Below are positions 444-63,431 of a DNA stretch of 64,000 bases, one piece after another. A model generated the notes under the pieces. The model made no database searches and was not told the origin of the DNA. It saw nothing but the letters and a program-made list of their open reading frames with translations. Both the position numbers and the translations under genes were made by a program. The DNA comes from a virus, in the IMG/VR virus record IMGVR_UViG_3300031999_000009, positions 1-64,000 of that record. One strand, written 5' to 3'. How positions within the stretch are numbered: position 1 is the first letter of the stretch; every line of letters begins with the position of its first letter.

Positions 444-607
444 AGATTCCAATGACGCAACACTCATCGTCTCAACGGTTACTTAGCTCGCGCCTATTGG
501 CGCTGAGTTATTGATCCGCGTGAGCTGGTGAGTCTCGCCGAAGCGTCAGCCTTCCTCTAGACAGACGACGTCGCAGCGCTCACTGATTCACGCGATAGCT
601 CTATCGC

Positions 608-697
608 GGAGAGTCGGCCTATCGGCTAGGGCACACAGTCTCGAAAACTGCCACCGCCTAAGAACGGCTGGGGGTTCAACTCCCTCACTCTCCGCCA
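608..697 (+). tRNA. tRNA-Ser (CGA)
   Basis: This is a 90-nt class II tRNA with a 7-bp acceptor stem (GGAGAGT/ACTCTCC), serine-type discriminator G, encoded CCA, a long variable arm (around 652-672) and anticodon CGA at 642-644, which reads UCG. The loop has the normal T33. Confidence 0.9.
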
Positions 698-699
698 AA

Positions 700-882: not shown

Positions 883-890
883 ATCGTAAC

Positions 891-968
891 CGCCGCGTGA
901 AGGGAACAGGCAGACCTCCCAAGCTCAAACCTTGGGGCTTCTCGGTTCGACTCCGAGCGCGGCGACCA
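891..968 (+). tRNA. tRNA-Leu (CAA), short variable loop
   Basis: Acceptor CGCCGCG/CGCGGCG, discriminator A, encoded CCA, anticodon CAA at 926-928 in a CTCAAAC loop, T-arm CTCGG/CCGAG. Only five bases (GGCTT) separate anticodon and T stems, so it lacks the long variable arm normal for bacterial tRNA-Leu. Confidence 0.85.
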
Positions 969-972
969 TCGT

Positions 973-1047
973 GGACCTGTGGCGAACGGCAGAGCAGGCG
1001 AGCTTAAACCTCGCCGGGTGCGGGTTCGAATCCCGCCGGGTCCACCA
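973..1047 (+). tRNA. tRNA-Leu (TAA), short variable loop
   Basis: Acceptor GGACCTG/CGGGTCC, discriminator A, CCA, anticodon TAA at 1005-1007, T-stem GCGGG/CCCGC. The variable region is five bases. The D-arm sequence (TGGCGAACGGCAGA) is leucine-like. Confidence 0.85.
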
Positions 1048-1052
1048 GACTT

Positions 1053-1136
1053 CGGCACGTGGCGGAACGGCAGACGCGCAAGCCCGAGGCGCTTGTGGAG
1101 AAATCCGTGGAGGTTCGATTCCTCTCGTGCCGACCA
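1053..1136 (+). tRNA. tRNA-Leu (GAG)
   Basis: An 84-nt class II tRNA with acceptor CGGCACG/CGTGCCG, discriminator A, CCA and a true variable arm (GGA GAAA TCC). The anticodon loop is CCGAGGC with GAG at 1086-1088. Position 33, almost always U, is C here. Confidence 0.85.
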
Positions 1137-1140
1137 TCTT

Positions 1141-1224
1141 GGAGGCGTAGACCGTTATGGAGACGGGGCTGTCTGTAGAACAGTCGTTTCGGCTCGGCTG
1201 GTTCGATTCCAGCCGCCTCCACCA
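1141..1224 (+). tRNA. tRNA-Tyr (GTA)
   Basis: An 84-nt class II tRNA with acceptor GGAGGCG/CGCCTCC, discriminator A, CCA, anticodon GTA at 1175-1177 in loop CTGTAGA, and the extra arm typical of bacterial tRNA-Tyr. Confidence 0.9.
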
Positions 1225-1230
1225 TCTCAC

Positions 1231-1308
1231 GGGCAAGTGAAGGGAACTGGCATACCTTGTCGGCTCAGACCCGGCAGCTTGTGGGTTCGACTCCCACCTT
1301 GCCCACCA
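1231..1308 (+). tRNA. tRNA-Leu (CAG), short variable loop
   Basis: Acceptor GGGCAAG/CTTGCCC, discriminator A, CCA, anticodon CAG at 1266-1268 in loop CTCAGAC, T-arm GTGGG/CCCAC. The variable region is five bases (AGCTT). Its D-arm closely resembles that of tRNA-Leu(CAA), suggesting a common duplicated ancestor. Confidence 0.85.
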
Positions 1309-1313
1309 GTTCT

Positions 1314-1338
1314 GAATCAGGAACGGCGATCCTGATTC
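1314..1338 (+). other. 9-bp perfect hairpin between tRNA genes
   Basis: GAATCAGGA and TCCTGATTC pair perfectly around the loop ACGGCGA. It is followed by CTTGACAC, not by a T run, so it is more likely an RNA-processing or stabilising hairpin than an intrinsic terminator. Confidence 0.55.
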
Positions 1339-1346
1339 CTTGACAC

Positions 1347-1433
1347 GGAAGGCGTCCGACTGGACGAGGAAGCAGCCCGCTAAGCTGCCGGCGCTCATCA
1401 CGCTTCGGGGTTCGAGTCCCCGGCCTTCCGCCA
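1347..1433 (+). tRNA. tRNA-Ser (GCT)
   Basis: An 87-nt class II tRNA with acceptor GGAAGGC/GCCTTCC, discriminator G, CCA and a long variable arm. The anticodon loop is CCGCTAA with GCT at 1379-1381. As in tRNA-Leu(GAG), position 33 is C instead of the conserved U. Confidence 0.87.
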
Positions 1434-1434
1434 T

Positions 1435-1508
1435 TGGCGAGTCGTTCAACGGCAGGACGGCGCCCTTTGAAGGCGTCTATCGTGGTTCGAATCCACGCTC
1501 GCCAGCCA
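1435..1508 (+). tRNA. tRNA-Gln (TTG)
   Basis: A 74-nt tRNA with acceptor TGGCGAG/CTCGCCA, glutamine-type discriminator G, CCA, anticodon TTG at 1467-1469 in loop CTTTGAA and a normal T33. Confidence 0.9.
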
Positions 1509-1513
1509 ACTCT

Positions 1514-1521
1514 GCTAGGAT
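1514..1521 (+). promoter_or_regulatory. Possible extended -10 promoter for the tmRNA
   Basis: TGC-TAGGAT lies 15 bp upstream of the mature tmRNA 5' end and resembles an extended -10 (TGnTATAAT). No -35 is seen. The tmRNA could instead be processed from the tRNA transcript. Confidence 0.3.
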
Positions 1522-1535
1522 GTGCAGGAAACTTT

Positions 1536-1900
1536 GGGGCCGACCCGGTTTCGACGGGTGTAAGAGAGCGATGTGTGCGTGCCGTCCTTGTCAGCCATGG
1601 ACGTAAAACGGGCGGACATCCTTCAACTGCTCAAGAAGCATTTGAACTCCCGATCGCGGCGTAACAACCGTCGTCGGGCGGTGGTCCTGCGAGGCGCCCA
1701 GTAGCAGGAACCCACTGTCATTTACCGGGCTAAGGCGTGGCGAGAATCCGGTGGTAGCCACGCACGAAAATCACGGTCGGATGGTGGAGGGCAAGTGCAA
1801 GCTGCCCCTCCCGCAGCCCAGCGGGTCATCTGGGATACGCACGTAGAGCACATCGAACGACGACATTCGGACGTGGGTTCGACTCCCACCGGCTCCACCA
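1536..1900 (+). ncRNA. ssrA: tmRNA (transfer-messenger RNA)
   Basis: A complete one-piece tmRNA. The 5' end GGGGCCGACCCGGTTTCGAC and the 3' end ...GGTTCGACTCCCACCGG plus CTCCACCA form the tRNA-like domain; acceptor GGGGCCG pairs with CGGCTCC and CCA is encoded. The tag frame ends at TAA 1662-1664 and reads GGHPSTAQEAFELPIAA at its C-terminus, a hydrophobic-AA degron end like other SsrA tags. The resume codon is probably GGC or GGA around 1611-1614 but is not certain. tmRNA releases ribosomes stalled on broken mRNA and tags the product for proteolysis. It directly follows the tRNA array. Confidence 0.93.
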
Positions 1901-50147: not shown

Positions 50148-51725
50148 ATGGCGAAGAAGATCCCTCCCGTGCCTGACGACGTGACCGTCATTGCACCCGT
50201 GCCCACCGAGAAGCCGACCGCGGCTGAGAGCGCGCTTCTCCAGGCGTTCAAGGCTGCGCGCCGCGTCTCGACGCCGATCGTGGCGATCGAGACTCCTGAC
50301 GCGGCGGCCACAATCGCCATGATTCGGAAGGTGCTGAACGACAAGGCACCGACGCTCTCGTGGGATTGTGCGCGCGGCCTGAAGGGCCTCAACGATCTCG
50401 GCAAGCAGGCGATGGCCAACCTCGGTATCGACCCGCAGCTCACCGTGAACGCCACGGAGACGTTGCTGGCGTGCGAGAACCTGCCCGAATTGTCGGTGGT
50501 GTTCATGCACAACTTCCACCGTCAGGTGAACGAGGCGTCAGTTATCCAGGCGCTCTGGAACCTGCGCGACGTGTTCAAGGTCAACAAGCGGATGATCGTG
50601 CCGTTGGGCTCGAGCTTCCAGATGCCGCCGGAACTGGCCGGCGACGTCATCACCCTCGACGAACCGCTTCCGACCCGCGAGGAGCTGTCGGCGACGCTCG
50701 ACCAGCAGCACAAGAACGCGGAGCTGCCGTTGCCGTCCGAGGAAGTCAGGGAAGCAGCGTTGGACGCCCTTGTGGGGTTGTCGAGCTTCACGGCGGAGCA
50801 GGTGGCGGCGATGTCGCTCACGAAGCAGGGCGTCAACGTCGCAAAGCTGTGGGAGCGCAAGGTCAAGGCCATCCAGAACACCGACGGCCTGCGCGTGTGG
50901 CAGGGACGCCCCGGCGACACGACGATGGACGAGCTGCGCGGCATCGACAACGTGGTCGAGTTCATGCGGAAGTTGGTGCACGCCGACGCGTTCGGCGCCA
51001 TCGTCTTCATCGACGAGATGGACAAGGCGTTCGCGGGTGGCATGTCCGAGCACACCGGTGACTCGGGCGTCAGCAAGGATCAGGTCGGCACGGTGCTGAG
51101 CTACATCGAGGACACGGGCTCACTCGGCGTGTTGCTGGCCGGCGTGGCTGGCACGGGCAAGACCCAGCTGGCGAAGGCCACTGGCGTGGAAGCGGGCAAG
51201 CCGGTCATCGTGTTCGACCTCGGCGGGATGAAGGGCGGCACGGTTGGCCAGTCGGAGCGCACGATTCGCGCCGCGCTCAAGGTGGTGACGGCCACGGCGG
51301 AGGGCCGCGTGCTGTTCATCGGAACGGCGAACCGGACCACGCTGTTCACGCCAGAGCTCAACCGACGGTTCCCCGACCAGTTCTTCTACGACACGCCAGA
51401 CGACGCCGGTCGCTCGGCAATCTGGCCTGTCTACGCGGCGAAGAACGGACTGACGGCCTCGCAGGCGCACGTGCCGCAGGGCTTCGACGCTGGGTGGACT
51501 GGCGCGGAAATCAAGCGCGCCTGTGAGCGGGCGGCCTTGTTCGGCTGCACGGTGGTCGAGGCGGCGCGGTTCATCATCCCGTCCAGCGTGAGCGGCAAGC
51601 GCCAGATCGAGGCGCTCCGGCACGAAGCGGCTGGTCGGTTCCTGTCCGCCAGCTACGACGGGTTCTACCAGGTGCCGCAGGCGCCACAGGTGCCCGTCCA
51701 GCAGCGGTCGATTGAGGTGCAGTGA
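50148..51725 (+). CDS. AAA+ ATPase with permuted Walker motifs, 525 aa
   Basis: ATG 50148 is chosen for its 9-bp spacing from AGAGGAG. The first ~240 residues resemble the N-terminal part of Ycf46-type ATPases. The core is unusual: a Walker B-like AIVFIDEMDKAF (D289, E290) and GDSGVSKDQVGT come first, then Walker A GVAGTGKT (K338), GGTVGQSERTIR, sensor 1 GTAN (N395) and the arginine-finger segment ELNRRF (R406/R407). In canonical relatives Walker A precedes Walker B. All motifs look intact, so activity is likely. Remodelling of a DNA or protein complex is the probable role; the target is unknown. Confidence 0.75.
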   Translation: MAKKIPPVPDDVTVIAPVPTEKPTAAESALLQAFKAARRVSTPIVAIETPDAAATIAMIRKVLNDKAPTLSWDCARGLKGLNDLGKQAMANLGIDPQLTVNATETLLACENLPELSVVFMHNFHRQVNEASVIQALWNLRDVFKVNKRMIVPLGSSFQMPPELAGDVITLDEPLPTREELSATLDQQHKNAELPLPSEEVREAALDALVGLSSFTAEQVAAMSLTKQGVNVAKLWERKVKAIQNTDGLRVWQGRPGDTTMDELRGIDNVVEFMRKLVHADAFGAIVFIDEMDKAFAGGMSEHTGDSGVSKDQVGTVLSYIEDTGSLGVLLAGVAGTGKTQLAKATGVEAGKPVIVFDLGGMKGGTVGQSERTIRAALKVVTATAEGRVLFIGTANRTTLFTPELNRRFPDQFFYDTPDDAGRSAIWPVYAAKNGLTASQAHVPQGFDAGWTGAEIKRACERAALFGCTVVEAARFIIPSSVSGKRQIEALRHEAAGRFLSASYDGFYQVPQAPQVPVQQRSIEVQ

Positions 51726-52141
51726 TGGCAGCCGCACAAGCCGGTTGGACCGACTACGCCATCCTGCAGGCGTCCTCTGGCAACGGGAAGCAGTGGAAGG
51801 TGCAGGTCAACGTCGAGGGCTTGTTCCGGTGCAACTGCCCGTCGTTCATCTTCAGCAAGATGTCGCCCAAGACGTGCAAGCACTGCAAGCGCTGTGAGGA
51901 GCAGCGGCTGACGGAAACGAAGGTCAAGCCGGTGGCTCGTCCGGCAATCGCGCCCTACTGGGACGAGGCGATGGGCTTCCTCGATAAGATGCTGACGCAG
52001 GCCAGCGCGTCCGTGACGGCCGCACAGAAGAAGGTCATGTGCGACGTCCTGGCGACCAAGCTGGCGCTGTTCAGGCCCATGGCGGCAGCGGTGGAAGTCA
52101 CCGAGGTCGTGGGCATCCGGCGGATCACGTTCGACGACTGA
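51725..52141 (+). CDS. SWIM-like zinc-finger protein, 138 aa
   Basis: ATG 51725 overlaps the ATPase stop (TGATG). After a beta N-terminus (GKQWKVQVNVEGLF) comes CxC...CxH: C36, C38, C51, H53, a SWIM pattern, with an extra C54/C57. The C-terminal half is helical. SWIM fingers bind DNA or proteins. Operon partner of the AAA+ ATPase. Confidence 0.65.
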   Translation: MAAAQAGWTDYAILQASSGNGKQWKVQVNVEGLFRCNCPSFIFSKMSPKTCKHCKRCEEQRLTETKVKPVARPAIAPYWDEAMGFLDKMLTQASASVTAAQKKVMCDVLATKLALFRPMAAAVEVTEVVGIRRITFDD

Positions 52142-53617: not shown

Positions 53618-53646
53618 TTGACTCCTGCCGCGATTGATAGTATCAT
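53618..53646 (+). promoter_or_regulatory. Promoter P3 of the six-copy regulon
   Basis: TTGACT 53618-53623, 17-bp spacer, TATCAT 53641-53646 with TGATAGTATCA. GATTTC replaces GAATTC 13 bp upstream. Precedes the SWIM primase-polymerase gene. Confidence 0.85.
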
Positions 53647-53682
53647 TGTCTTATGTTGATGGAGACGATGATGGAGACAAAC

Positions 53683-54465
53683 ATGACCACTTGGGAATTC
53701 CCGAGCACCACGACAAGCGAGATTCACACCGTCACCCTGGTCGACCCGCGCACGAAGTTTCTGACGTGCACCTGCACTGGTTTCAAGTATCGCCGCGACT
53801 GCTGGCACACCAAGGCGGTCGCCGAAAAGATTTCCCCGGCGGTGGCACCGGCTGACAACAAATTTCTTCGAGCCGCGCTCGACTATCACAAGATGGGCTA
53901 CCACGTGATTCCGGTCGAGCCGAACGGCAAGCGGCCACTCGTGCAGTGGAAAGATTTCATGACCGTCAAGCCGACGCTGGGCCAGATCAAGACCTGGTGG
54001 ATGCGCACCCCGAACGCCAACGTGGCGATTGTGCTCGGCCAGAACCGGTTTGCGGTGGACCTGGACGGCGGCGCCGAAGCCGAAAAATTATTGGCGGACG
54101 CGGGCATCGAGCTTCCCGCCGACGCGCCCCGCAGCAAGACAGGCGGCGGCAATCACGTGTTCCTGTCCGCGCCCACGCCGCAACCTGACCGAATCGGTCT
54201 GCTGAAGGCGGCCGAGCCGCTGGCCGGCGCACTGCCCACGCCGAAGGGCAAGCTGCGCCACGCGCAAATCGACATCCGCGGCCTCGGAATAATTATCGCG
54301 GCCCCGTCCGTGCACCCGAGCGGTGCCGTCTACACGTGGCTGTCGCCGCTGACGGCCACGCCGCCGATGGCGTCGGACGCGCTGCTGGAGCTCATCGCCT
54401 ACGTGCCTCCGCCGCCACCGAAGAAGCCGCGGGCGCCGCGCAAGGCAAAGGTCGTGGTGTCATGA
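53683..54465 (+). CDS. SWIM finger plus AEP-type primase-polymerase, 260 aa
   Basis: ATG 53683 gives MTTWEF, matching the ligase gene's start. Residues 1-50 are a SWIM module (C29, C31, C40, H42). From ~60 to 235 is a bifunctional primase-polymerase N-terminal domain: YHKMGYHVIPVEPNGKRPL, NANVAIVLG, metal-binding VDLDG (D126, D128), GGGNHVFLS and DIRGLGIIIAAPSVHPSG. AEP enzymes make primers or fill short gaps; LigD-type polymerases in bacterial end joining are also AEP proteins, though of a different subfamily. No helicase is fused. Confidence 0.8.
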   Translation: MTTWEFPSTTTSEIHTVTLVDPRTKFLTCTCTGFKYRRDCWHTKAVAEKISPAVAPADNKFLRAALDYHKMGYHVIPVEPNGKRPLVQWKDFMTVKPTLGQIKTWWMRTPNANVAIVLGQNRFAVDLDGGAEAEKLLADAGIELPADAPRSKTGGGNHVFLSAPTPQPDRIGLLKAAEPLAGALPTPKGKLRHAQIDIRGLGIIIAAPSVHPSGAVYTWLSPLTATPPMASDALLELIAYVPPPPPKKPRAPRKAKVVVS

Positions 54466-54542
54466 AGAAAATAATTCTCCTGGCCACCTTCTGCTGGCTC
54501 GTGCTGCTGCTCGGTCAATACGCGGGGCAGCACGGATGGTAG
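54462..54542 (+). CDS. Small membrane peptide, 26 aa
   Basis: ATGA overlap with the primase-polymerase stop. MKKIILLATFCWLVLLLGQY is one membrane helix with a basic start. Its end overlaps the next ATG. Confidence 0.5.
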   Translation: MKKIILLATFCWLVLLLGQYAGQHGW

Positions 54543-54763
54543 TCGCGACCTACCCGTCGTCGACTGAGCCTGGCGTCACACACACCGTCACGGTGAAGAC
54601 GCGCCCCGGCACCAGGCAGGTGGCGTTGAAGTGCACGTGTAAAGGGTTCACGCGCGCGGCGCGCTGGCACTCCTGCTGGCATGTCCGCGAGGTGGCTCAA
54701 CGAAATAATTATTTGACCGTGGTCGGCGGCGAGCTGTTCGGCTACACACCGGAGGCCAAATGA
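54536..54763 (+). CDS. Stand-alone SWIM zinc finger, 75 aa
   Basis: The protein is little more than a SWIM module: THTVTVK, then C33, C35, C47, H49 and a short helix. It shares the HTVT[LV] lead-in with the modules of the primase-polymerase and ligase. Overlaps both neighbours by a few bases. Confidence 0.7.
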   Translation: MVVATYPSSTEPGVTHTVTVKTRPGTRQVALKCTCKGFTRAARWHSCWHVREVAQRNNYLTVVGGELFGYTPEAK

Positions 54764-55908
54764 CCTGGGAGTTTGCGTCGAAGTCTAGCAGTGCTGTTCA
54801 CACCGTGACGCTCCACCCCTCTGGCGAACTCGTGTGCACGTGCAGCGGCTGGCGTTTCAAGAAGCCTGGCAAGCCACGTGAGTGCACGCACATGACGGGG
54901 CTCATCAAAAAGAATTCGTGGTCACGGGACGTGAAGGGCGACCTCGTGATCATCAAAGAATCCGTCGAAAATAGTCCGAATTCGGTCGTGCCTCTCTTGA
55001 CTCCGCCTGTCGATGATAGTATCATTGTTCTTGTAGGAGGGACACCAACAATGAACACAACGATGACCACCCCCACTCAGACGGCCCCGGACGCGCAGCT
55101 TGCGGTGGGCATGACCACCCCGGTGAGCGGTGCGGCGTTCAACGAAAAATATGGCGACGGCACCTGGTCGATGGACGAGAAGCTCGACGGCCACCGGTGC
55201 TTGGTCGTGAAGCGCGGCGAGGACATCAAGTGCTGGTCACGCGGCGGCGCCGGTCGTGCCAGCCTCGAAAAGAAAGTGACCCCAGCCATCCTGTCCGCCA
55301 TCGCGCAGATGCCCGACGGCATCTACGACGGCGAGCTGATGATTCCCGGCGGCAACTCATGGAACGTGGTGGACCTGGCCAGGCAGCACGAGCTGGTGGT
55401 CATCCTGTTCGACGTGCAGGAGATTCTGGGCCAGAACGTGTGCAAGGAACCACAGTCCATGCGGCGCGACCTGCTCGCGCAGGCGGTGGCGCACGTGAAG
55501 ACGGACGCGGTGCGGTTGGTGGCCAGCTTCACGCCGGAGTGGGCGGTCATCGAAAAGATTTGGGCCGAGGGTGGCGAGGGCGTCATCGTCAAAAAGAATT
55601 CTGCCCCCTACCGCCCCGGCTACCGGTCGGATGCGTGGGTCAAGGTGAAGCAGCTGATGTCGGTGGTCGGCGTCATTACCGGGTTCAAGGCTGGCTCGTT
55701 CGGTCCCCACTCAGTAACCTGCGTGACCCTGGACAGCGGCGTCAAAACCCAGGTCAAGACACTGGACACCGTGACGCTGGCGGCGATCGAAAAAAATCCC
55801 GAATCTTTCCTCGGCCACCGACTGGTGATTCAGTGCCAGCAGGTGGTGGCGTCGAGCGGCTGCCCGCGTCATCCGATGTGGGACCACATGGCGGGAGACA
55901 CGGAATGA
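54760..55908 (+). CDS. SWIM finger plus ATP-dependent DNA ligase, 382 aa
   Basis: Residues 1-50 form a SWIM module (MTWEF...HTVTL; C26, C28, C42, H44). A linker (~70-130) contains an in-frame promoter and ribosome site. The ligase core follows: motif I EKLDG with nucleotide-binding K141, DGEL, EGVIVK (E273), and motif V WVKVK (K295, K297), then a short OB-like C-terminal part. It seals DNA nicks using ATP. A shorter form from ATG 55051 (285 aa, lysine at 44) starts after AGGAGGG and lacks the SWIM finger. No LigD polymerase or phosphoesterase domain is fused. Confidence 0.85.
   Translation: MTWEFASKSSSAVHTVTLHPSGELVCTCSGWRFKKPGKPRECTHMTGLIKKNSWSRDVKGDLVIIKESVENSPNSVVPLLTPPVDDSIIVLVGGTPTMNTTMTTPTQTAPDAQLAVGMTTPVSGAAFNEKYGDGTWSMDEKLDGHRCLVVKRGEDIKCWSRGGAGRASLEKKVTPAILSAIAQMPDGIYDGELMIPGGNSWNVVDLARQHELVVILFDVQEILGQNVCKEPQSMRRDLLAQAVAHVKTDAVRLVASFTPEWAVIEKIWAEGGEGVIVKKNSAPYRPGYRSDAWVKVKQLMSVVGVITGFKAGSFGPHSVTCVTLDSGVKTQVKTLDTVTLAAIEKNPESFLGHRLVIQCQQVVASSGCPRHPMWDHMAGDTE
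54997..55025 (+). promoter_or_regulatory. Promoter P4, inside the SWIM-ligase ORF
   Basis: TTGACT 54997-55002, 17-bp spacer, TATCAT 55020-55025, TGATAGTATCA, GAATTC 13 bp upstream (54978-54983). It encodes LLTPPVDDSII in frame. AGGAGGG and ATG 55051 follow, giving a ligase without the SWIM module. Confidence 0.8.
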
Positions 55909-56222
55909 AAAATAAATTCCGCGCACTGCTCGCCCACTTGCGGCATCGCCTGTTTCACGGTGAGCACCATCACCTGCAGGAGCACGGCGACCGCGAAATA
56001 TTTCTTCGATGCTCACTGTGTGGGCTTCGATCGCCAGGCGTGCTCCTGGGGCCAGGGCCTCGTCCGGCGCTGGCTGGCGACCCCGTCCGTGCCAAGGCTC
56101 TTGTCGCCTCTGTCTCGCGCATCGTGCCACCGCTCGTGGCCGCGCCAGTGACAGCAGACGAGATTCGGTGGTTGGTCCACGAAGACGAAGACGACTTTCC
56201 TTCGATGCGACAGGTTCATTAG
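55905..56222 (+). CDS. Hypothetical protein with CxxC, 105 aa
   Basis: ATGA overlap with the ligase stop. N-terminus rich in His/Arg (LLAHLRHRLFHGEHHHLQEHGDR), then CSLC and a hydrophobic-acidic C-terminus (TADEIRWLVHEDEDDF). May bind zinc. Unknown role. Confidence 0.55.
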   Translation: MKNKFRALLAHLRHRLFHGEHHHLQEHGDREIFLRCSLCGLRSPGVLLGPGPRPALAGDPVRAKALVASVSRIVPPLVAAPVTADEIRWLVHEDEDDFPSMRQVH

Positions 56223-56231
56223 GAGACGACG

Positions 56232-56690
56232 ATGAAGGTATCAGAGGTCGGCTTGCTCGACGAATGCTTCACGCACATCGCGGAAGACGGAAAGCAGACC
56301 AGCTACGCGGTCACCAAGCTGGTTGAGTATCTGGCCGCCCACAATTGGGAGAAGGTGGTGGTGCCCGTCGAGGAGTTCCACGCGGCCTACTGTGTCAACA
56401 ACCGCGGTGTCGAGCCTGACCGCATCGCTCGCCTGCTTCAGTGCGTGCCGGCGTTGGTGCGGCCGATCGTGTTCATCCACATGCCGGACAACTCGCACCT
56501 GTTGGTGGATGGCACGCACCGCTACGTGGCGCTCTTCGGGCTGAATCGAACGGAAATCTTCGCGCACATGGTGCCGTGGGACATCGCTAAGGACTTCATC
56601 CTCGAGGACATTCCCAACACGACACCCGAGCGGTTGATGCAGCACTCGCACCTCTCGCAACTTCGCGAGCTTCTCGGGATCGATCGGTAG
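56232..56690 (+). CDS. ParB/sulfiredoxin-like fold protein, 152 aa
   Basis: AGGAGACGACG precedes the ATG. The block VVVPVEEFHAAY...RPIVFIHMPDNSHLLVDGTHRYVALFGLN is typical of ParB-like nuclease/Srx-fold domains. No DNA-binding HTH is present, so it is not a parS-binding segregation ParB. Confidence 0.65.
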   Translation: MKVSEVGLLDECFTHIAEDGKQTSYAVTKLVEYLAAHNWEKVVVPVEEFHAAYCVNNRGVEPDRIARLLQCVPALVRPIVFIHMPDNSHLLVDGTHRYVALFGLNRTEIFAHMVPWDIAKDFILEDIPNTTPERLMQHSHLSQLRELLGIDR

Positions 56691-56888
56691 ATGCCCACGC
56701 TGGTCATCACGATGGCAAATGGGTCCGTCCAGCGGCACAAGGGATGGACGCTGGAAATGGCCGAGCGGCTCAAGGCATCCTGGGCGCAGATCACCCCTCC
56801 ACCGGTCTTCACGATCGCGTGGGAGGACATAGGAGACGACGATGGCGGTTACAAAAGCGGCAAAGCTCGACGACCTCAATCTCGGTGA
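56691..56888 (+). CDS. Small hypothetical protein, 65 aa
   Basis: ATG is the base after the previous stop. An alpha/beta N-terminus (TLVITMANGSVQRHKGWTLEMAERLKASW) and a charged tail. Its end overlaps the next gene by 47 bp. Confidence 0.5.
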   Translation: MPTLVITMANGSVQRHKGWTLEMAERLKASWAQITPPPVFTIAWEDIGDDDGGYKSGKARRPQSR

Positions 56889-57147
56889 TTTCGTCTATGA
56901 CATGCACGACGGTTTGCGCCCGTTGCGCGAGCGCTTCGGCATCATCTCCATGGTGCAGTGGCACCACTCCAGCGAAAACGTCCAGCCGTTCGTCGGGCCC
57001 AAAGGGTGGAAGTTTCCGAACAAGGAGCTGCGCGTGATCGGCTTCACGGATGAAGGCCACGCCGTGTGTGGCTTCACCTACGACGGTATCCGCAGCGGCA
57101 TTCTGGTGCTGTCGGACTTGGTCACTGGCCCAGACCCGAGGGATTGA
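56842..57147 (+). CDS. Hypothetical protein, 101 aa
   Basis: AGGAGACGACG precedes the ATG. Beta-rich (LNLGDFVYDMHDGLRP...RVIGFTDEGHAVCGFTYDG), SH3-like in pattern. No family recognised. Confidence 0.6.
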   Translation: MAVTKAAKLDDLNLGDFVYDMHDGLRPLRERFGIISMVQWHHSSENVQPFVGPKGWKFPNKELRVIGFTDEGHAVCGFTYDGIRSGILVLSDLVTGPDPRD

Positions 57148-57149
57148 GC

Positions 57150-57263
57150 ATGTCAAGGTTCGTGGGAGTTGTGATCGGTGCGTGTTTCGTCGTGGGCTGC
57201 CTCGCGCTGGCGATCGCCTTCGCCGCGTGGTCCGTCCATCTGGCGTGGAGCCAATTTCAATGA
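57150..57263 (+). CDS. Small membrane protein, 37 aa
   Basis: GAGGGATTGAGC precedes the ATG. MSRFVGVVIGACFVVGCLAL starts a single membrane helix that runs to ~residue 27. Confidence 0.5.
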   Translation: MSRFVGVVIGACFVVGCLALAIAFAAWSVHLAWSQFQ

Positions 57264-57565
57264 CCTTCCAGGTCTGGCATCGTCGCCTTCCCACGTTCAT
57301 GGAGAGCCGGCCGGAGGAACTTGTCGCCTTCCCGCAAGGGTGGCAGCACGTTGCTGACGTGGACGTGGACGCATTGAACCAGGTCTTCGAGCGGACCAAT
57401 AGCATCGACGCGCTGTGGACCGACAACCTGGAAGTGACGCTCCGCGTGGCTCCACCGCTTCGGTCGACGTCAGTCGGGGACGTGATCGTCGCGCCCAATG
57501 CGGTCGGCCTGAACGGACAGCCTGCCAGGCTTGAAATCGCGATGCTCGGTTACAAGGAGTTCTGA
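57260..57565 (+). CDS. YodL-like hypothetical protein, 101 aa
   Basis: ATG overlaps the previous stop (ATGA). Ends with NQVFERTNSIDALWTDN and RSTSVGDVIV, a signature seen in small YodL-like domains of phage and anti-restriction proteins. Activity unknown. Confidence 0.6.
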   Translation: MTFQVWHRRLPTFMESRPEELVAFPQGWQHVADVDVDALNQVFERTNSIDALWTDNLEVTLRVAPPLRSTSVGDVIVAPNAVGLNGQPARLEIAMLGYKEF

Positions 57566-57566
57566 G

Positions 57567-58484
57567 ATGGTCAAGAACAGGAAGCGGGCCTACGCCGGCG
57601 TGCTGGACATTCCCGAGGGCGAGCAGAACGGCATCCGGATTCGCCACAAGCATCAACCGCCTGGCACTACGCTCCAGTCAGGCAACTTCCGCACGGCGTT
57701 GTTCGGCCAGAAATCGGAGAGCGTCACGTTCAAGGCCGCGACTATCTGGCACGAGCTGTCCGAGAAGGGCCAGGGCGTGTGGATGACGGACCTCCCGATC
57801 GAGCAGCGCCAGATGGACGAGCTCATCACCAAGGCCCGCGGACGGGTGCTGGTGGGCGGGCTTGGGCTGGGTTACGCGGTGGTGGCGTTGTCGGCGATGC
57901 GCTCTGTTGAGGAAATCGTCGTGGTCGAGCGCAACCCTGACATCGTGGCGCTCGTGTGGGCGGCGACGGTCGCCAAGTGCCGCAAGGGCGTCCCCGTTTC
58001 CGTGGTGACCGAAGACTTGTTCGACTACTTGCTGTGGGCGACAGCCAAGCAGGAGAGGTTCGATTGGGGCCTCTTCGACATCTGGCAGGGCGACGGTGAA
58101 ACGACCTTTCACCAGACCGTCGTGCCGCTGCGCGCCGCCGCCGCGCGTGTCGTTCGCGAGCTGGAGTGCTGGAACGAAGACGTCATGCGCGGCCAGCTGA
58201 TGATGGGCCTCCGGACGCGCCTGATGTTCCTGGGCGCAGCGGAAACGGCGAGTGTCGTGGGGTCTGATCTGACGAAGGGCATGCCGACCCTCGAGTTCCT
58301 GTGCGAGCCGCACCAATCCATCTACACCGACTGGTCGGTGGCGTTCTGGCGCTGGTATCGCGAAAACGCTGGTGCCGCCAACATCGACGTGATGCTGGCA
58401 CTTTACGCGTCCAGCTACGGTCGCCCAGAACGGGCAGCAACGCTAGCGCGATTCGAGGCACGCCATGAGCTTCAAGCTCGGTGA
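57567..58484 (+). CDS. Spermidine-synthase-like methyltransferase fold, 305 aa
   Basis: ATG 57567 follows AAGGAG. Residues ~92-160 form a Rossmann fold with GRVLVGGLGLGYAVVAL and EIVVVERNPDIVALV, then FDWGLFDIWQGDGE, as in spermidine-synthase-like and class I methyltransferases. The substrate is unknown. C-terminus is helical and overlaps the next gene by 20 bp. Confidence 0.65.
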   Translation: MVKNRKRAYAGVLDIPEGEQNGIRIRHKHQPPGTTLQSGNFRTALFGQKSESVTFKAATIWHELSEKGQGVWMTDLPIEQRQMDELITKARGRVLVGGLGLGYAVVALSAMRSVEEIVVVERNPDIVALVWAATVAKCRKGVPVSVVTEDLFDYLLWATAKQERFDWGLFDIWQGDGETTFHQTVVPLRAAAARVVRELECWNEDVMRGQLMMGLRTRLMFLGAAETASVVGSDLTKGMPTLEFLCEPHQSIYTDWSVAFWRWYRENAGAANIDVMLALYASSYGRPERAATLARFEARHELQAR

Positions 58485-58674
58485 GTTGCTCGGATCGGAA
58501 GAGATTCACGTGCGCCTGGAGTGTGCGACTGGGAAGGCTCCCTTCGATAGTCGACAGGACGCCAACCGCGCCCTCAAGCGATTGCCTCGGTCTGGGCCCA
58601 CGCGGATGACGGTGTTCCGATGCGGCTATTGCGAGAAGTATCACCTCGGCCACCGTCGAGGAGCAGTTCTGTGA
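58465..58674 (+). CDS. Small zinc-knuckle protein, 69 aa
   Basis: Starts within the end of the methyltransferase gene. Residues ~50-62 (FRCGYCEKYHLGH) form a Cys2His2-like knuckle after a helix with basic residues. Likely nucleic-acid binding. Confidence 0.6.
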   Translation: MSFKLGELLGSEEIHVRLECATGKAPFDSRQDANRALKRLPRSGPTRMTVFRCGYCEKYHLGHRRGAVL

Positions 58675-58838
58675 GTAAACGATGCCCACGATGCGAGTCG
58701 CCGGACCCGGCACGGCATCCCGCCATGCAGTTCGAGGGGGAAGTGCAAATCTGTGAGCACCCTTGGCACGGCATACCAATCGACACGAGCACGAAGCGAT
58801 TGGGAGCCCAGGCCAGAGCGGCCGAGGAGGGGAAGTGA
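58671..58838 (+). CDS. Small zinc-ribbon protein, 55 aa
   Basis: GTG overlaps the previous stop. SKRCPRCESPDPARHPAM, then CEHPWH, gives Cys/His ligands for zinc. Confidence 0.55.
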   Translation: MSKRCPRCESPDPARHPAMQFEGEVQICEHPWHGIPIDTSTKRLGAQARAAEEGK

Positions 58839-58954
58839 GGGGACCAACTCCTCGGCGTCTTGGGCGCCACAATCCCCGGCGCACGATACTGTTGCGACAT
58901 CGACTCACGACATCCCTGTGGGGTCTTGGCCGCGAGCGAGGAGGAGAACGATGA
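58835..58954 (+). CDS. Possible tiny basic protein, 39 aa
   Basis: GTG overlaps the previous stop; the product is Arg-rich (RRLGRHNPRRTILLRHRL). It could be an untranslated spacer; only the coupled start supports it. Confidence 0.3.
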   Translation: MRGPTPRRLGRHNPRRTILLRHRLTTSLWGLGRERGGER

Positions 58955-59385
58955 GTGCCAAGAGAAAGGTTCAGATTCCGTCCATTGGCGACCTGTTGGT
59001 GCTCGCCGCACCGTGGCAATTCCACGTGGTGAATGAGCATCGGAACGCCACGCTTGTCGCTCACATGGGGAAAACAGTGCCAGGCCGGTCCTATTACCCG
59101 CTGGGCGTCACCCAAGCCGCGTCATGGCACCCGTTGCCTTCGACGCTCTGGTGCACGATCCCCTCCGGCGCCGTGCTCCGCGTCTCGCGTATCTACATCC
59201 GCGCTGGTGCGGCCGCCTACGACTCAGTGACGTTCTGGTGGAAGCCATCGCCGAAGGCGAAATCGGTTCGATTCTTCGCTCGACTGCCAGATGTGAACAA
59301 GATGTCGGTGCGCTCTGATGCCTGGACCGCCCGAGACGAGGCCGACCCGGTCCTTGGTGCCCGAGCGATCGAATTGGAGGAGTGA
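58951..59385 (+). CDS. Hypothetical protein, 144 aa
   Basis: GAGGAGGAGAACG precedes the ATG. Beta-rich body (IGDLLVLAAPWQFHVVNEHRNATLVAHMG...LRVSRIYIRAGAAAYDSVTFWW). No family recognised. Confidence 0.6.
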   Translation: MSAKRKVQIPSIGDLLVLAAPWQFHVVNEHRNATLVAHMGKTVPGRSYYPLGVTQAASWHPLPSTLWCTIPSGAVLRVSRIYIRAGAAAYDSVTFWWKPSPKAKSVRFFARLPDVNKMSVRSDAWTARDEADPVLGARAIELEE

Positions 59386-59567
59386 TGACATGCGTGAACT
59401 GCGGTAAGAATGAGGCGCCGCTGGTGATTTGCGACCAGTGCCGCCAGTCCTATCCCGGCGACCCGCAGGTGCTCGAAATGATGGTGCACGCGTTCCAGCT
59501 GTATCGCGTGCCTGTCCTTGAGGCGTCCCCGGCTCCGTCGTGGCCGAAGAAGGTCGATCCGCAATGA
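59385..59567 (+). CDS. Small zinc-ribbon protein, 60 aa
   Basis: ATG 59385 overlaps the previous stop (TGATG); GTG 59382 is the alternative. CVNC at residues 3-6 and CDQC at ~17-20 form a rubredoxin-like knuckle pair. Confidence 0.6.
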   Translation: MTCVNCGKNEAPLVICDQCRQSYPGDPQVLEMMVHAFQLYRVPVLEASPAPSWPKKVDPQ

Positions 59568-59758
59568 GCTTCATTCGCGTGCTCTGGGCACAGCGCGGCG
59601 GCCACATCCATTGTCGCGTGTTCGTTTCGAAGACGGAGGACGGCCCAGGCCATGCGTCCGGCAATCTCGTGTTCGACGTAGACGAGTGGCCCTGGGTGGC
59701 CCGCCGACTTGCGTATGTGGCTGGGATGGTTGTCGTTCACGAAGGAGACAACACGTGA
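59564..59758 (+). CDS. Hypothetical protein, 64 aa
   Basis: ATGA overlap with the previous gene. Beta-rich (FIRVLWAQRGGHIHCRVFVSK...LVFDVDEWPWVARRL). Overlaps the helicase start by GTGA. Confidence 0.55.
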   Translation: MSFIRVLWAQRGGHIHCRVFVSKTEDGPGHASGNLVFDVDEWPWVARRLAYVAGMVVVHEGDNT

Positions 59759-60987
59759 GCTTCGTCCTGCGCGACTACCAAGAAAACGCCGTATCGCGAG
59801 GCGTGCAATTCTTGAAGTCTGGCACTGGCGGCGGCTTGGTCGTGCTGCCGACCGGTGCTGGCAAGTCGTTGGTCATCGCCGGCATCGCCAGTCGCCTGGA
59901 TGGTCCGTGCCTGATTTTCCAGCCGTCGCGCGAAATCCTCCAGCAGAACGCAACGAAGTTGCTGGCGTATGGCTACGAGCCGTCCGTCTACTCCGCGTCG
60001 ATGGGCGTGAAGGAGGTTGGCCACATTACGCTGGCGACCATCGGAAGCGTGAAGGCGCGACCGGACTTGTTCGACGCCTTCCCCTACATCATGGTGGATG
60101 AGGCCCACCTGGTGAATGCCAAGTCCGGCATGTATCAGGAGTTCATCGAGTCCATGGGCGACGTGCGCGTCCTGGGGTTGACGGCAACGCCGTTCCGACT
60201 GTCGACCGATGGCTACGGTGGTTCGCAGTTGAAGTTTCTGACACGCACCAGGCCGCGCTTCTTTCACACGGTCGTGGCCTATGCCCAAATCCCAGACCTG
60301 ATCCAGCGCGGCTATCTGTTCAAGCCGGAATACCAGGCCGTGACTGGCTTCACGGCCTCGGCTTTGAAGCTGAACACGACAGGCGCGGACTACACGGACG
60401 ATTCCGTGAAGCGCCATTTCAACCAGATCGGCTTCGCTGACCGCCTGCGCCGCATCGTCCTGCGTCTCTTGGAAGTGGGGCGCCGGAATGTGCTGGTCTT
60501 CACGCGGTTCGTAGATGAGGCCGAAGCGCTGGCGCGCACCGTGCCTGGCACGGCCGTCGTGACGGCAGCTACGAAGTCGCACGAGCGCGAGCAAATCATC
60601 GCAGACTTCAGGTCTGGCGTGATCAAGGTGGTGGCGAACGTCGGCGTGCTGGGCTTGGGCTTCGACTTCCCTGAGCTGGAGACGGTGGTGCTGGCCAGGC
60701 CGACCGTTTCGCTGGCGCTCTACTATCAGCAGGTCGGGCGCCTGCTGCGACCACACCCCGCGAAGACGTCCGCGTGGGTGGTGGACATGGTTGATCAGGT
60801 CCGTCAGTTTGGGCCGATCGAAAACTTGTGGCTTCAACCAGGCGGACCCAGTGGGATGCTCTGGGAGATGGTGACGCGCACGGATGGCGTGACGAAGCCG
60901 TTGACGAACACGTATTTCGGTGGCGATCCGACGGGACGACGAAAGAAGTGGGATCGCAAGCGGAAGTGGGGAACCAATGGACGTTGA
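59755..60987 (+). CDS. DEAH-type SF2 helicase, 410 aa
   Basis: GTG 59755 overlaps the previous stop and follows GAAGGAGAC. Motifs in order: Q-motif-like LRDYQENAV, Walker A PTGAGKS (K37), DEAH at 115-118, TATPFR, and motif VI QQVGRLLRP. The layout matches phage UvsW/RecG-like and restriction-helicase-like short SF2 enzymes. It probably unwinds or remodels DNA at forks or recombination intermediates. The C-terminus is basic. Confidence 0.85.
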   Translation: MSFVLRDYQENAVSRGVQFLKSGTGGGLVVLPTGAGKSLVIAGIASRLDGPCLIFQPSREILQQNATKLLAYGYEPSVYSASMGVKEVGHITLATIGSVKARPDLFDAFPYIMVDEAHLVNAKSGMYQEFIESMGDVRVLGLTATPFRLSTDGYGGSQLKFLTRTRPRFFHTVVAYAQIPDLIQRGYLFKPEYQAVTGFTASALKLNTTGADYTDDSVKRHFNQIGFADRLRRIVLRLLEVGRRNVLVFTRFVDEAEALARTVPGTAVVTAATKSHEREQIIADFRSGVIKVVANVGVLGLGFDFPELETVVLARPTVSLALYYQQVGRLLRPHPAKTSAWVVDMVDQVRQFGPIENLWLQPGGPSGMLWEMVTRTDGVTKPLTNTYFGGDPTGRRKKWDRKRKWGTNGR

Positions 60988-61213
60988 GCAGGCAGATTCG
61001 TCGCATGAGAAATGGGCAGACACAGCCGAATTGGTGGCCGAGAACCCGGCCGCGGCCACCGCGAAGTCGTTGCGGTTGGCGTTGGCGTATCTGTCGTATC
61101 GGCGGGCGGCGCTCATCTTGAACGCGCGCCGCAAGAAGCGAGAGCCCTCCGAAAAGAAGTTGGCAGCGATCGACGCGCGGTTGCAGCACTACGCCGAATT
61201 GCTTCAGAAATAG
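60977..61213 (+). CDS. Small helical protein, 78 aa
   Basis: ATG lies inside the end of the helicase gene. Long charged helix (AAATAKSLRLALAYLSYRRAALILNARRKKREPSEKKLAAIDARLQHYAELL). Possibly a helicase partner or a nucleic-acid-binding factor. Ends 24 bp before promoter P5. Confidence 0.6.
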   Translation: MDVEQADSSHEKWADTAELVAENPAAATAKSLRLALAYLSYRRAALILNARRKKREPSEKKLAAIDARLQHYAELLQK

Positions 61214-61237
61214 TCAAAGAATTCGGAGACGAAGGTG

Positions 61238-61266
61238 TTGACTCCTGCGCCCTTTGATAGTATCAT
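61238..61266 (+). promoter_or_regulatory. Promoter P5 of the six-copy regulon
   Basis: TTGACT 61238-61243, 17-bp spacer, TATCAT 61261-61266 with TGATAGTATCA, GAATTC 13 bp upstream (61219-61224). It is followed by about 430 bp without a convincing gene. Confidence 0.85.
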
Positions 61267-61696
61267 TATTCTTGTAAGGAGGGGTGGGCGGCCGGAGGGG
61301 CTGTCACCGCGCCGGGTCAGAAGAGGGCCCGAACGCTCACCCACTTTGACAACTGAATCAGTCCAACGTGACCGGGCCCGAGTGGGTCGGGTTGCAGGAG
61401 ACGGCCGACATATCCGGTAGGGACGCCAGCGCCGGACACACTAAGGCCGGGAGACATCTCCCCTGTAGGAACGCTGAAGTTACGTTGGACTGATTGGGTT
61501 GTCGGGGACACACGCCGGCGCGCGCAAGGGCAAGCGATTCCGCACGGACAAGCACTTCCGGGCGTTGCCCGATACGAAGGCGCCCTGTATCGGGAAAGGC
61601 GACGGCGGCCTTGACGACCCGCACTCTGCGTCGGATGTTAGGTTCAAGTAATTGGACCCATGCACGAAAGGTCCGACGCGCACTTTGGAGGCGATG
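61267..61696 (+). ncRNA. Structured leader or non-coding RNA downstream of P5
   Basis: The transcript begins TTCTTGTAAGGAGGGG but this ribosome site leads only to a 21-codon GTG ORF. A perfect 14-bp inverted repeat, AATCAGTCCAACGT (61356-61369) and ACGTTGGACTGATT (61482-61495), extends to 17 bp with one G-U and encloses ~110 nt with smaller hairpins (CCCGA/TCGGG; GGGAGA/TCTCCC). CCCGATAC/GTATCGGG (61569-61595) is a further hairpin. No known RNA family is recognised. Confidence 0.5.
61499..61651 (+). CDS. Possible small protein, 50 aa
   Basis: A TTG at 61499 begins (M)SGTHAGARKGKRFRTDKHFRALPDTK and ends SASDVRFK at TAA 61649-61651. The residue pattern looks coding and basic, but there is no good ribosome site and it overlaps the end of the inverted repeat region. 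Confidence 0.35.
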   Translation: MSGTHAGARKGKRFRTDKHFRALPDTKAPCIGKGDGGLDDPHSASDVRFK

Positions 61697-62071
61697 ATGA
61701 CGACTCAGTTCACGCTCATTCAGTTCACGCTCCTCACCAAGCAACGCCGCCGTATCGTCCGCCAGGAACCGTGCTGGCTGGCGACGGCGTCGTTCGCTGA
61801 CGGGCCAGGGATGAAGGTCAAGAAGATGACCACCACGCGAGATATCCAGAAGGCGGCTCGCTTCAGTCTCGTGACTGCGCACAACATCGCGGTCCAGTTC
61901 TCACACCTGCCGGCATCGCTGGTTCGACCGGACGGGTCGGTCCTCGAGGCCGAGTCGTCTGCGGTGCAGGCGGAACAGCGTCGGCGACACGACGAGCACC
62001 ACCGCCTGAAGCGGGACATGAACCGAGACTTGAACGCCCTGTTCGAGTCGGCTGCGGAGATGCTGCGATGA
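61697..62071 (+). CDS. Hypothetical protein, 124 aa
   Basis: TTGGAGG lies 5 bp before ATG 61697 (an ATG at 61694 is closer and in frame). N-terminus is beta-like (TTQFTLIQFTLLTKQRRRIVR); the C-terminus is a charged helix (QAEQRRRHDEHHRLKRDMNRDL). First substantial gene downstream of P5. Confidence 0.6.
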   Translation: MTTQFTLIQFTLLTKQRRRIVRQEPCWLATASFADGPGMKVKKMTTTRDIQKAARFSLVTAHNIAVQFSHLPASLVRPDGSVLEAESSAVQAEQRRRHDEHHRLKRDMNRDLNALFESAAEMLR

Positions 62072-62220
62072 GCAAGACCAGCGACTGGGCCATCCGCGTG
62101 CTGAACGAGGAGCCGCCCTTGAACAAATACGAGCGCGTGGTGCGCTACGACGCGTCGATGCTCAGGATGCAACGCATCTGGGCCTACCTTCTGAAAAGAA
62201 AGATGAGGCTCTACCGATGA
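62068..62220 (+). CDS. Small basic protein, 50 aa
   Basis: ATGA overlap with the previous gene. Helical and basic (NKYERVVRYDASMLRMQRIWAYLLKRKMR). Overlaps the next ATG by four bases. Confidence 0.6.
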   Translation: MSKTSDWAIRVLNEEPPLNKYERVVRYDASMLRMQRIWAYLLKRKMRLYR

Positions 62221-62543
62221 AGCGCACACGCGCCAGTCTGCAGTTGGCCGAACTTCGGAAGCTGCGTGAGATTGCCCACGAGTGCCTCGAAGGTCGCGCC
62301 TGCCCATTCTGCGGCGAGCCGCTGCTGACGACCACCAACATCTACGCACCTGGTGACGGGATGGCGTCCCCCATCAATGCGGACCTCACACTGCATCACC
62401 GCGACGGCAACCACGCGAACAACGCGAAGACGAACCGCGTGTGGGCACACCGGCGTTGCCACAAGTCGTTCCACATGACCGAGCGCCATTTGGCCCGAAA
62501 GAAAGCATCGAATTTAGGCAAAGAATTAGCCCACACAGCTTGA
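62217..62543 (+). CDS. HNH endonuclease-like protein, 108 aa
   Basis: ATGA overlap. CPFCGEP at residues ~31-37 supplies two zinc ligands, and LTLHHRDGNHANNAKTNRVWAHRRCHKSFH is an HNH motif (His-His, Asn, His). Could act in DNA packaging, homing or repair; it is upstream of the Ku gene here. Confidence 0.75.
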   Translation: MKRTRASLQLAELRKLREIAHECLEGRACPFCGEPLLTTTNIYAPGDGMASPINADLTLHHRDGNHANNAKTNRVWAHRRCHKSFHMTERHLARKKASNLGKELAHTA

Positions 62544-62568
62544 CTCGCTGCCGGATTGATAGTATCAT
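62540..62568 (+). promoter_or_regulatory. Promoter P6 of the six-copy regulon, upstream of Ku
   Basis: TTGACT 62540-62545, 17-bp spacer, TATCAT 62563-62568 with TGATAGTATCA. GAATTA 11 bp upstream of the -35. The -35 overlaps the HNH stop codon. Confidence 0.85.
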
Positions 62569-62630
62569 CGTTTGGTAAGGTGATGACGACCACTTCGGCA
62601 ACCACGGTGACTACGAAGGAGACGACGACA

Positions 62631-63431
62631 ATGGCCATGCGCTCAATCCTCAACTTGAACATCAGCCTCGGAATGTTCGGCTTCCCGGTCAAGGTTTACA
62701 AGGCAGTGAACGACCCCGCGGAGGGCATCTCGTTCCGCCAGGTGCACGCAGCGTGCGGCACCCCGATCAACCAGGTGAAGCGCTGCTCCTGCTGCAACGT
62801 CGACGTGACGCAGGCGGAGCTGGTCAAGGGCTACGAGCAGCCCGGTGGCCCGATGCTGATCTTCCAAGAGGACGAGATCAAGGCCCTCAAGCCCGAGGCG
62901 ATGGGCACGGTCAAGGTCGACGGCTACCTCGCCGCTGACGAAATCGACCCCTGTTACCAGGACGGCCCCATCTACTACTTGTCACCTGACCGCGGCACCA
63001 ACAAGAAGGGCGACTGCGACACGTTCACCACCTGGCGCGACGCGCTGGCTGGCCGGTGGGCCATCGGCAAGGTCGTCATGTATGGCCGCGAGCACGTGGT
63101 GGCGATTCGCAGCGTCGACCGCCTCTTGGCGATGCACTTCATTCGGACCCACTCGGAGATTCGCAACGTGTTCGACGTGCCGGCCTACGACACGGTGCCG
63201 GAGACGAGCAAGAGCGAATACGCCGAGCTGATGGGCCAGCTCATTCGCAAGTCCACCATCGCGTTCGACGACGTGGTGCTGGAGTCTGACGCCTACACGG
63301 ACTCGGTGAAGGCGCTGATCGAGTCGCGCAAGGCAGGCCAGCCCGCTCCGGCGCAGGCTGAGTTCAAGCCCGCGTCCACCGGTGGCGACCTGCTCGCGAT
63401 GCTGAAGGCGTCATTGGCGGCTCAGGCGTGA
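62631..63431 (+). CDS. ku: Ku-type DNA end-binding protein, 266 aa
   Basis: ATG 62631 follows GAAGGAG; upstream in-frame starts overlap the promoter. Typical bacterial Ku core: SILNLNISLGMFGFPVKVYKA, ISFRQVHAACGTPINQVKRCSCCNVDV, LVKGYEQPGG, then a core alpha/beta beta-barrel and C-terminal helices. Homodimeric Ku threads onto double-strand ends and recruits ligase. The C-terminal tail is short. Phage Ku is known in a few phages such as Corndog and Omega. It shares its promoter type with the ligase and primase-polymerase. Confidence 0.9.
   Translation: MAMRSILNLNISLGMFGFPVKVYKAVNDPAEGISFRQVHAACGTPINQVKRCSCCNVDVTQAELVKGYEQPGGPMLIFQEDEIKALKPEAMGTVKVDGYLAADEIDPCYQDGPIYYLSPDRGTNKKGDCDTFTTWRDALAGRWAIGKVVMYGREHVVAIRSVDRLLAMHFIRTHSEIRNVFDVPAYDTVPETSKSEYAELMGQLIRKSTIAFDDVVLESDAYTDSVKALIESRKAGQPAPAQAEFKPASTGGDLLAMLKASLAAQA

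What the first reader, a model, noticed from the sequence alone, without database searches (positions are those of the whole stretch)
53618..63431. Possible phage non-homologous end-joining system built from separate Ku, SWIM-ligase and SWIM-primase-polymerase genes
Seen: Ku (62631), ATP-dependent ligase (54760) and an AEP-type primase-polymerase (53683) are all present, each preceded by the same promoter. Known: bacterial NHEJ uses Ku plus LigD, which fuses ligase, AEP polymerase and phosphoesterase. Inference: the phage carries the same activities as separate proteins under one regulon, perhaps to repair or circularise its own DNA ends. No LigD phosphoesterase is seen, and the AEP is of the PF09250 kind, which more often primes replication.
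Basis: partly seen in the sequence, partly recalled or inferred. Interest (0 to 1): 0.88.

Follow-up and report, generated by a model that had tools for sequence, protein, structure and literature searches.

The report
Phage Ku with its own ligase

Summary
The three genes are real: a bacterial-type Ku (62631-63431), a SWIM-fused ATP-dependent ligase (54760-55908) and a SWIM-fused PF09250 primase-polymerase (53683-54465). The shared promoter is also real (8 sites in 83 kb, none by chance), but it serves other genes too, and at the ligase it lies inside the reading frame, between the SWIM and ligase domains. That internal promoter recurs at the same place in two relatives whose promoter sequence has diverged, so the gene probably makes both a SWIM-ligase and a short ligase. 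Comparative evidence splits the trio. Ku and ligase co-occur in all four members of this phage group in which the region is recovered, and in every Ku-bearing virus record that has a ligase, one lies within 0.7-7.6 kb of Ku. The primase-polymerase is absent from the near-complete sister genome and is not linked to Ku elsewhere. LigD polymerase and phosphoesterase domains are absent from all 30 Ku records. Best reading: a two-component phage end-joining module (Ku plus minimal ligase), a new variant of the known mycobacteriophage Ku strategy, which uses host LigD. End joining itself is inferred, not shown. The primase-polymerase is more likely replicative, or a recent recruit through its copied SWIM module.

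The parts
53618..53647 (+). Shared promoter (TTGACT, 17 bp, TATCAT; palindrome TGATAGTATCA over the -10) of the AEP gene
53683..54465 (+). SWIM-AEP: SWIM zinc finger (about residues 1-50) joined to a PF09250 primase-polymerase domain; AEP motifs VDLDG (54055), SKTGGGNH (54133) and DIRGLG (54271) present
   Evidence: not found in the relatives
54536..54763 (+). Stand-alone 75-aa SWIM-like protein between AEP and ligase
   Evidence: CxC...CxH motif; similar to the AEP SWIM; no Pfam match
54760..55908 (+). SWIM-ligase ORF (382 aa): SWIM-like module (1-66), disordered linker (69-121), ATP-dependent ligase domain (K141-L-D-G motif) and predicted C-terminal OB-like strands
   Evidence: fusion kept in L030 and L031
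54997..55026 (+). Internal promoter inside the SWIM-ligase frame, at the domain junction
   Evidence: same place in L030 (4219) and L031 (4060); chance near zero
55051..55908 (+). Putative short ligase (285 aa) read from the internal promoter, RBS ggagg
   Evidence: sequence; PF01068 1.8e-18 for this part alone
56232..56690 (+). Conserved neighbour of unknown function with a ParB/Srx-like DGTHRY motif; kept beside Ku/ligase in G000, G001, G002 and G035
   Evidence: no Pfam match; fold reading is from the motif only
59750..60987 (+). SF2 (DEAD/ResIII-type) helicase, core neighbour upstream of Ku; ORF opens at 59518, start near 59750 by homology
   Evidence: 74-75% identity in the relatives
62540..62569 (+). 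Shared promoter of the Ku gene
62631..63431 (+). Ku (266 aa): core plus minimal C-terminus, no extended basic tail
63387..63413 (+). Ku minimal C-terminus DLLAMLKAS; D253, L254, S261 align with M. tuberculosis Ku D250, L251, S258, which are needed to stimulate LigD ligation
   Evidence: PMC9638933

Best explanation
The phage encodes a two-component end-joining module. Ku binds and bridges DNA ends, and through its core and minimal C-terminus it stimulates a dedicated two-domain ATP-dependent ligase to seal them. This is the arrangement of Ku plus the LIG domain of LigD, but with free-standing proteins and no LigD polymerase or phosphoesterase. Both genes are driven by the phage's own repressor-type early promoter. 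The ligase gene appears to give two products, SWIM-ligase and short ligase, because a second promoter lies in frame at the domain junction. The likeliest job is circularising the injected genome or rejoining cut phage DNA. The AEP is not a core part. Shown by sequence: the genes, co-occurrence, linkage, promoters, purifying selection and the key Ku residues. Inferred: end binding, the Ku-ligase interaction, two ligase products and the biological role.
For: Ku passes the Ku_bact equivalog cut-off, folds like B. subtilis and M. tuberculosis Ku (TM 0.75-0.82 by query), and keeps D/L/S residues whose mutation in M. tuberculosis Ku abolishes ligation stimulation. [quoted passage not shown] The closest NCBIfam model of the ligases of the window, of L034 and of G035 is the LigD ligase domain TIGR02779. 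Ku and ligase co-occur in 4 of 4 group members. In every Ku record with a ligase, one lies within 7.6 kb; for five separate lineages P = 7e-5. In G005 the Ku and ligase ORFs overlap by 4 bases. Ku (dN/dS 0.13), SWIM (0.15) and ligase (0.13) are under purifying selection. The internal promoter is conserved in three genomes although its sequence diverged.
Against: No interaction, end-joining assay or genome-end structure is known. The ligases are far below the LigD-ligase equivalog cut-off (79.6 against 227.75 bits) and by fold equally resemble LigE, ASFV and T4 ligases (the model is weak, mean pLDDT 68). Most Ku viruses (22 of 30 records) show no ligase of their own, although many are fragments. 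In the window Ku and ligase are 6.7 kb apart under separate promoters shared with other genes. All counts rest on incomplete metagenomic records.
Confidence: 0.5

Rival explanations
1. One reading: Ku, SWIM-ligase and SWIM-AEP form a three-component end-joining set, a distributed LigD in which the AEP fills gaps before ligation.
For: All three are driven by the same promoter family. AEP and ligase are near neighbours and carry the most similar SWIM modules (score 99, 0 of 2000 shuffles). The AEP motifs are intact. No DNA polymerase of family A or III-alpha was found, and a separate CHC2/Toprim-D5 primase-helicase already exists, leaving the AEP free for another job.
Against: AEP absent from syntenic G001 and from the syntenic stretch of G002 and not found in G035. 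Elsewhere AEPs are unlinked to Ku. It is PF09250, not the LigD polymerase family (no TIGR02778 match). Omega-type phages hold a similar stand-alone AEP near a DnaB-like helicase.
Confidence: 0.15
2. Omega/Corndog-type use of the host: phage Ku recruits host LigD, and the phage ligase serves replication or nick repair.
For: Published precedent with 4-base 3' overhangs in Omega and Corndog (PMC4351075, PMC3706429, PMC7719229). The minimal C-terminus that stimulates LigD is conserved. Most Ku phages have no ligase.
Against: Tight Ku-ligase linkage in unrelated phages would then be unexplained. This Ku lacks the extended C-terminus that in M. tuberculosis binds the LigD polymerase domain.
Confidence: 0.2
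3. Ku is only an end shield (Gam-like) against host exonucleases, and the nearby ligase is coincidental.
For: Gam-type end protection is known in Mu and other phages (PMC1378119; PMC12407980).
Against: The ligation-stimulating residues would not need to be conserved; linkage to a ligase would be unexplained.
Confidence: 0.1

Closest known systems
Mycobacteriophage Omega/Corndog Ku (clusters J and O)
   Same: Bacterial-type Ku encoded by a tailed phage; minimal C-terminus conserved; stand-alone PF09250 AEP elsewhere in Omega-type genomes
   Different: Those phages use host LigD (PMC7719229), and no PF01068 ligase was found in the J and O records searched. Here Ku is only 24-31% identical, has no Lsr2 tail, and is paired with a phage ligase.
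Bacterial two-component NHEJ (Ku + LigD)
   Same: Ku of the same equivalog family; nearest curated ligase model is the LigD ligase domain; Ku-ligase linkage
   Different: No LigD polymerase or phosphoesterase; ligase below the LigD cut-off; ligase fused to a SWIM module with an internal promoter
Stand-alone PF09250 Prim-Pol (phrog_1156 N-terminus, pRN1 ORF904)
   Same: AEP domain and motifs
   Different: Fused to SWIM instead of a helicase; the D5-type helicase of this phage is a separate CHC2/Toprim protein

Membership tests
Bacterial Ku (TIGR02772 / PF02735) | Score above the curated equivalog cut-off | tested here: met
   162.8 bits against a cut-off of 150, residues 4-262
Bacterial Ku (TIGR02772 / PF02735) | Ku core fold | tested here: met
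   AlphaFold2 pLDDT 86; Foldseek E 9.5e-19 to B. subtilis Ku
Bacterial Ku (TIGR02772 / PF02735) | Minimal C-terminal residues needed to stimulate ligation | tested here: met
   D253, L254, S261 = M. tuberculosis D250, L251, S258; D247 and R262 are not kept
Bacterial Ku (TIGR02772 / PF02735) | Homodimer that binds duplex ends | not testable with these tools
   needs biochemistry
LigD | Ligase domain above the TIGR02779 cut-off | tested here: not met
   79.6 bits against 227.75, although it is the best-scoring model
LigD | PolDom (TIGR02778) | tested here: not met
   0 of 30 Ku virus records, control positive
LigD | Phosphoesterase domain (TIGR02777) | tested here: not met
   0 of 30, control positive
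Minimal ATP-dependent DNA ligase | Nucleotidyltransferase domain with KxDG | tested here: met
   PF01068 4.8e-18; K141-L-D-G invariant in eight ligases as K-x-D-G
Minimal ATP-dependent DNA ligase | C-terminal OB domain | tested here: inconclusive
   strands predicted at 299-360 but no Pfam OB match
PF09250 Prim-Pol | Score above the gathering cut-off and catalytic motifs | tested here: met
   93.8 bits against 22.8; motifs located
SWIM zinc finger | CxCx(n)CxH and Pfam PF04434 | tested here: met
   AEP copy 23.0 bits against 19.6; the ligase copy has the motif and is similar to the AEP copy but is below Pfam threshold
Omega/Corndog phage NHEJ | Short 3' cohesive ends | not testable with these tools
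   record ends are contig breaks, not known genome ends
Omega/Corndog phage NHEJ | Dependence on host LigD | not testable with these tools
   host unknown; no bacterial genome held a close relative

The most novel reading that the evidence does not exclude
A distributed LigD in the making: the SWIM module is a shared targeting tag that brings ligase, and in this phage also an unrelated PF09250 primase-polymerase, to Ku-held DNA ends, while the in-frame internal promoter lets the phage tune tagged against untagged ligase.
Probability: 0.12. Interest if true: 0.8.

Novelty: new variant of a known kind. Interest (0 to 1): 0.56.

Why it matters
Phage Ku is known only as a factor that borrows the host's LigD. 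A recurring phage pair of Ku plus a dedicated small ligase would be an end-joining kit that does not need host NHEJ. It could work in the many bacteria without LigD, and could be reconstituted with two small proteins. It also makes testable whether phages use NHEJ to circularise or to repair DNA cut by host defences. The promoter kept in frame between two domains of one gene is an unusual way to make two forms of one enzyme.

Tried and rejected
Single-protein pattern scans of viral contigs with Ku, ligase and AEP alone found nothing; alignments were needed. The window's promoter pattern in viral contigs gave 22 one-site contigs; none of their records holds a PF09250 AEP and they were not used. 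Two scans of bacterial genomes (Ku, capsid) for a host or prophage found nothing. Monophyly of the group's Ku including G035 is unresolved because G035 is a long branch. The idea that SWIM and ligase are two adjacent genes was rejected: the frame is open in three genomes, the length difference between L030 and L031 is whole codons, and the SWIM part is under purifying selection. LigD-type AEP rejected. Capsid relatives G030, G031 and G033 lack the AAA gene of the early region and are uninformative about Ku.

Full report
What is there. The window is the first 64 kb of an 83,273-base IMG/VR virus record. Structural genes (portal, head protease, major capsid) fill the left part and early genes the right. 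The three genes named are real. Ku at 62631-63431 matches PF02735 at 1.4e-26 and passes the curated cut-off of the bacterial Ku equivalog (162.8 against 150 bits). The ligase ORF at 54760-55908 matches PF01068 at 4.8e-18, and the AEP at 53683-54465 matches PF09250 at 2e-26 with a SWIM finger. The early region also has SSB, an AAA ATPase, a DEAD/ResIII helicase, a PD-(D/E)XK nuclease, ThyX and a CHC2/Toprim/D5 primase-helicase at 77466-79631 of the record.

The promoter. TTGACT-N10-TTGATAGTATCAT occurs at 48278, 49827, 53618, 54997, 61238 and 62540 in the window (0 expected), and at 67959 and 82943 beyond it. All are on the + strand and score 40-49 bits; nothing else in the record scores above 10. 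Read as TTGACT, 17 bp, TATCAT it is a sigma-70-type promoter whose -10 is overlapped by the palindrome TGATAGTATCA, presumably an operator (inference). It drives AEP and Ku but also unrelated early genes, so it does not mark an end-joining regulon. At the ligase it is not upstream of 54760: it lies in frame inside the ORF, between the SWIM and ligase domains, and is followed by ggagg and ATG 55051.

Relatives. An alignment-based scan found 33 Ku loci in viral contigs. Two are close: L030 (G001, 122,115 b) and L031 (G002, 21,551 b), with Ku 60-62% identical. G001 is syntenic with the window from capsid to primase-helicase (capsid 85%, AAA 77%, SSB 69%, helicase 74%). Both carry the SWIM-ligase fusion 5-6 kb upstream of Ku (43-44% identity). 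Neither carries a PF09250 AEP, and the SSB-to-ligase stretch of G001 is sequenced without one. A capsid scan led to a fourth member, G035 (57,952 b): a divergent Ku (28%) and a ligase without SWIM (31%) lie about 1 kb apart, with the 56232 homologue between them and AAA, a SWIM-like protein and SSB next. A PF09250 AEP was not found there, but that contig ends just after SSB.

The internal promoter. In L030 (4219) and L031 (4060) a TTGACT ... TATCATT promoter also lies in frame at the SWIM/ligase junction, and promoters of the same kind precede their Ku genes, although the operator-like sequence differs from that of the window. Such sites are not expected by chance (0 and 0.005 per locus). The AlphaFold2 model has a very low-confidence linker at 69-121 between SWIM and ligase. 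SWIM, ligase and Ku are under purifying selection (dN/dS 0.15, 0.13, 0.13), the junction less so (0.48). I infer that the gene yields SWIM-ligase from upstream transcription and a shorter ligase from the internal promoter.

Is Ku linked to ligase or to AEP? Among 30 Ku-bearing virus records, 8 have a PF01068-type ligase and 7 a PF09250 AEP. In every ligase-bearing record one ligase lies near Ku: 0.7 to 7.6 kb in the seven records measured, and about 6 kb in G002 (positions). One row per lineage gives P = 7e-5 that all five fall within 5.8 kb. In G005 Ku and ligase overlap by four bases, and that record has a phage portal gene. The AEPs lie 9-46 kb from Ku, no closer than random (P = 0.53); in mycobacteriophage MiaZeal the AEP is 2.3 kb from a DnaB-like helicase. 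LigD polymerase and phosphoesterase models match none of the 30 records. The SWIM-ligase was found only in Ku phages. Weak points: many records are fragments, the sample is small, and at least one (G024, 458 kb) was not checked for being a phage; it is not in the five-lineage test.

How it probably works. The Ku model matches solved bacterial Ku (TM by query 0.75-0.82). Its C-terminus DLLAMLKAS aligns with the M. tuberculosis minimal C-terminus, which is kept in nearly all phage Kus. In M. [quoted passage not shown] The phage pair has that form: Ku without an extended tail, and a ligase without polymerase. The nearest curated model of the ligases tested is the LigD ligase domain, but far below its cut-off, so it works like an NHEJ ligase without being filed as LigD. 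By fold it is also close to LigE, ASFV and T4 ligases.

The AEP. Its SWIM is more like the SWIM of the neighbouring ligase than like any other tested (score 99; 0 of 2000 shuffles), which suggests copying of the module within this genome. That leaves open a recent recruitment to the same target. Replication is the more ordinary reading, since PF09250 domains are usually parts of primase-helicases, although this phage has another primase-helicase, and no family A or III-alpha polymerase was found in G000, G001 or G035 (G000 and G035 are incomplete).

Known context. Mycobacteriophages Omega and Corndog carry Ku, have 4-base 3' overhangs and use host LigD (PMC4351075, PMC7719229, PMC3706429). Searches of the held papers found no description of phages carrying Ku with a linked ligase or of SWIM-ligases, but the library is partial. 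I file this as a new variant of a known kind.

Noticed in passing
window 61271-61520, + strand, just after promoter 61238: No convincing gene but a strongly folding stretch (MFE -119 kcal/mol for 250 nt, z -4.2, closed by a long stem of about 25 bp): a candidate structured non-coding RNA under the shared promoter. No Rfam match, no relative in phages or in fetched loci.
   Followed up: partly
window 51722-52141 and 54536-54763: Small SWIM-like proteins with CxC...CxH motifs; with the AEP and ligase copies, four SWIM-like modules lie within 3.2 kb. The 51722 protein is kept beside AAA and SSB in G001, and G035 has a SWIM-like protein there too.
   Followed up: partly
window 368-1900: Eight tRNA genes and a tmRNA gene with tag AQEAFELPIAA, which could help name the host.
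   Followed up: no
window 56232-56690; G001 91103; L031 6137; G035 53056: Conserved 152-aa protein with a DGTHRY motif (ParB/Srx-like by eye) beside Ku/ligase in all four group members; no Pfam or PHROG match.
   Followed up: partly
L030 and L031: The sister phages use a different early promoter family (TTGAC ... AATGG-N-TACCATT type) in front of Ku and inside SWIM-ligase, so operator and repressor seem to change while promoter positions stay.
   Followed up: partly
L061 (G027): A record with Ku, ligase and an AAA protein hitting the same PHROG (phrog_8638) as the window's AAA, plus an integrase: possibly the same early cassette in a temperate phage.
   Followed up: no
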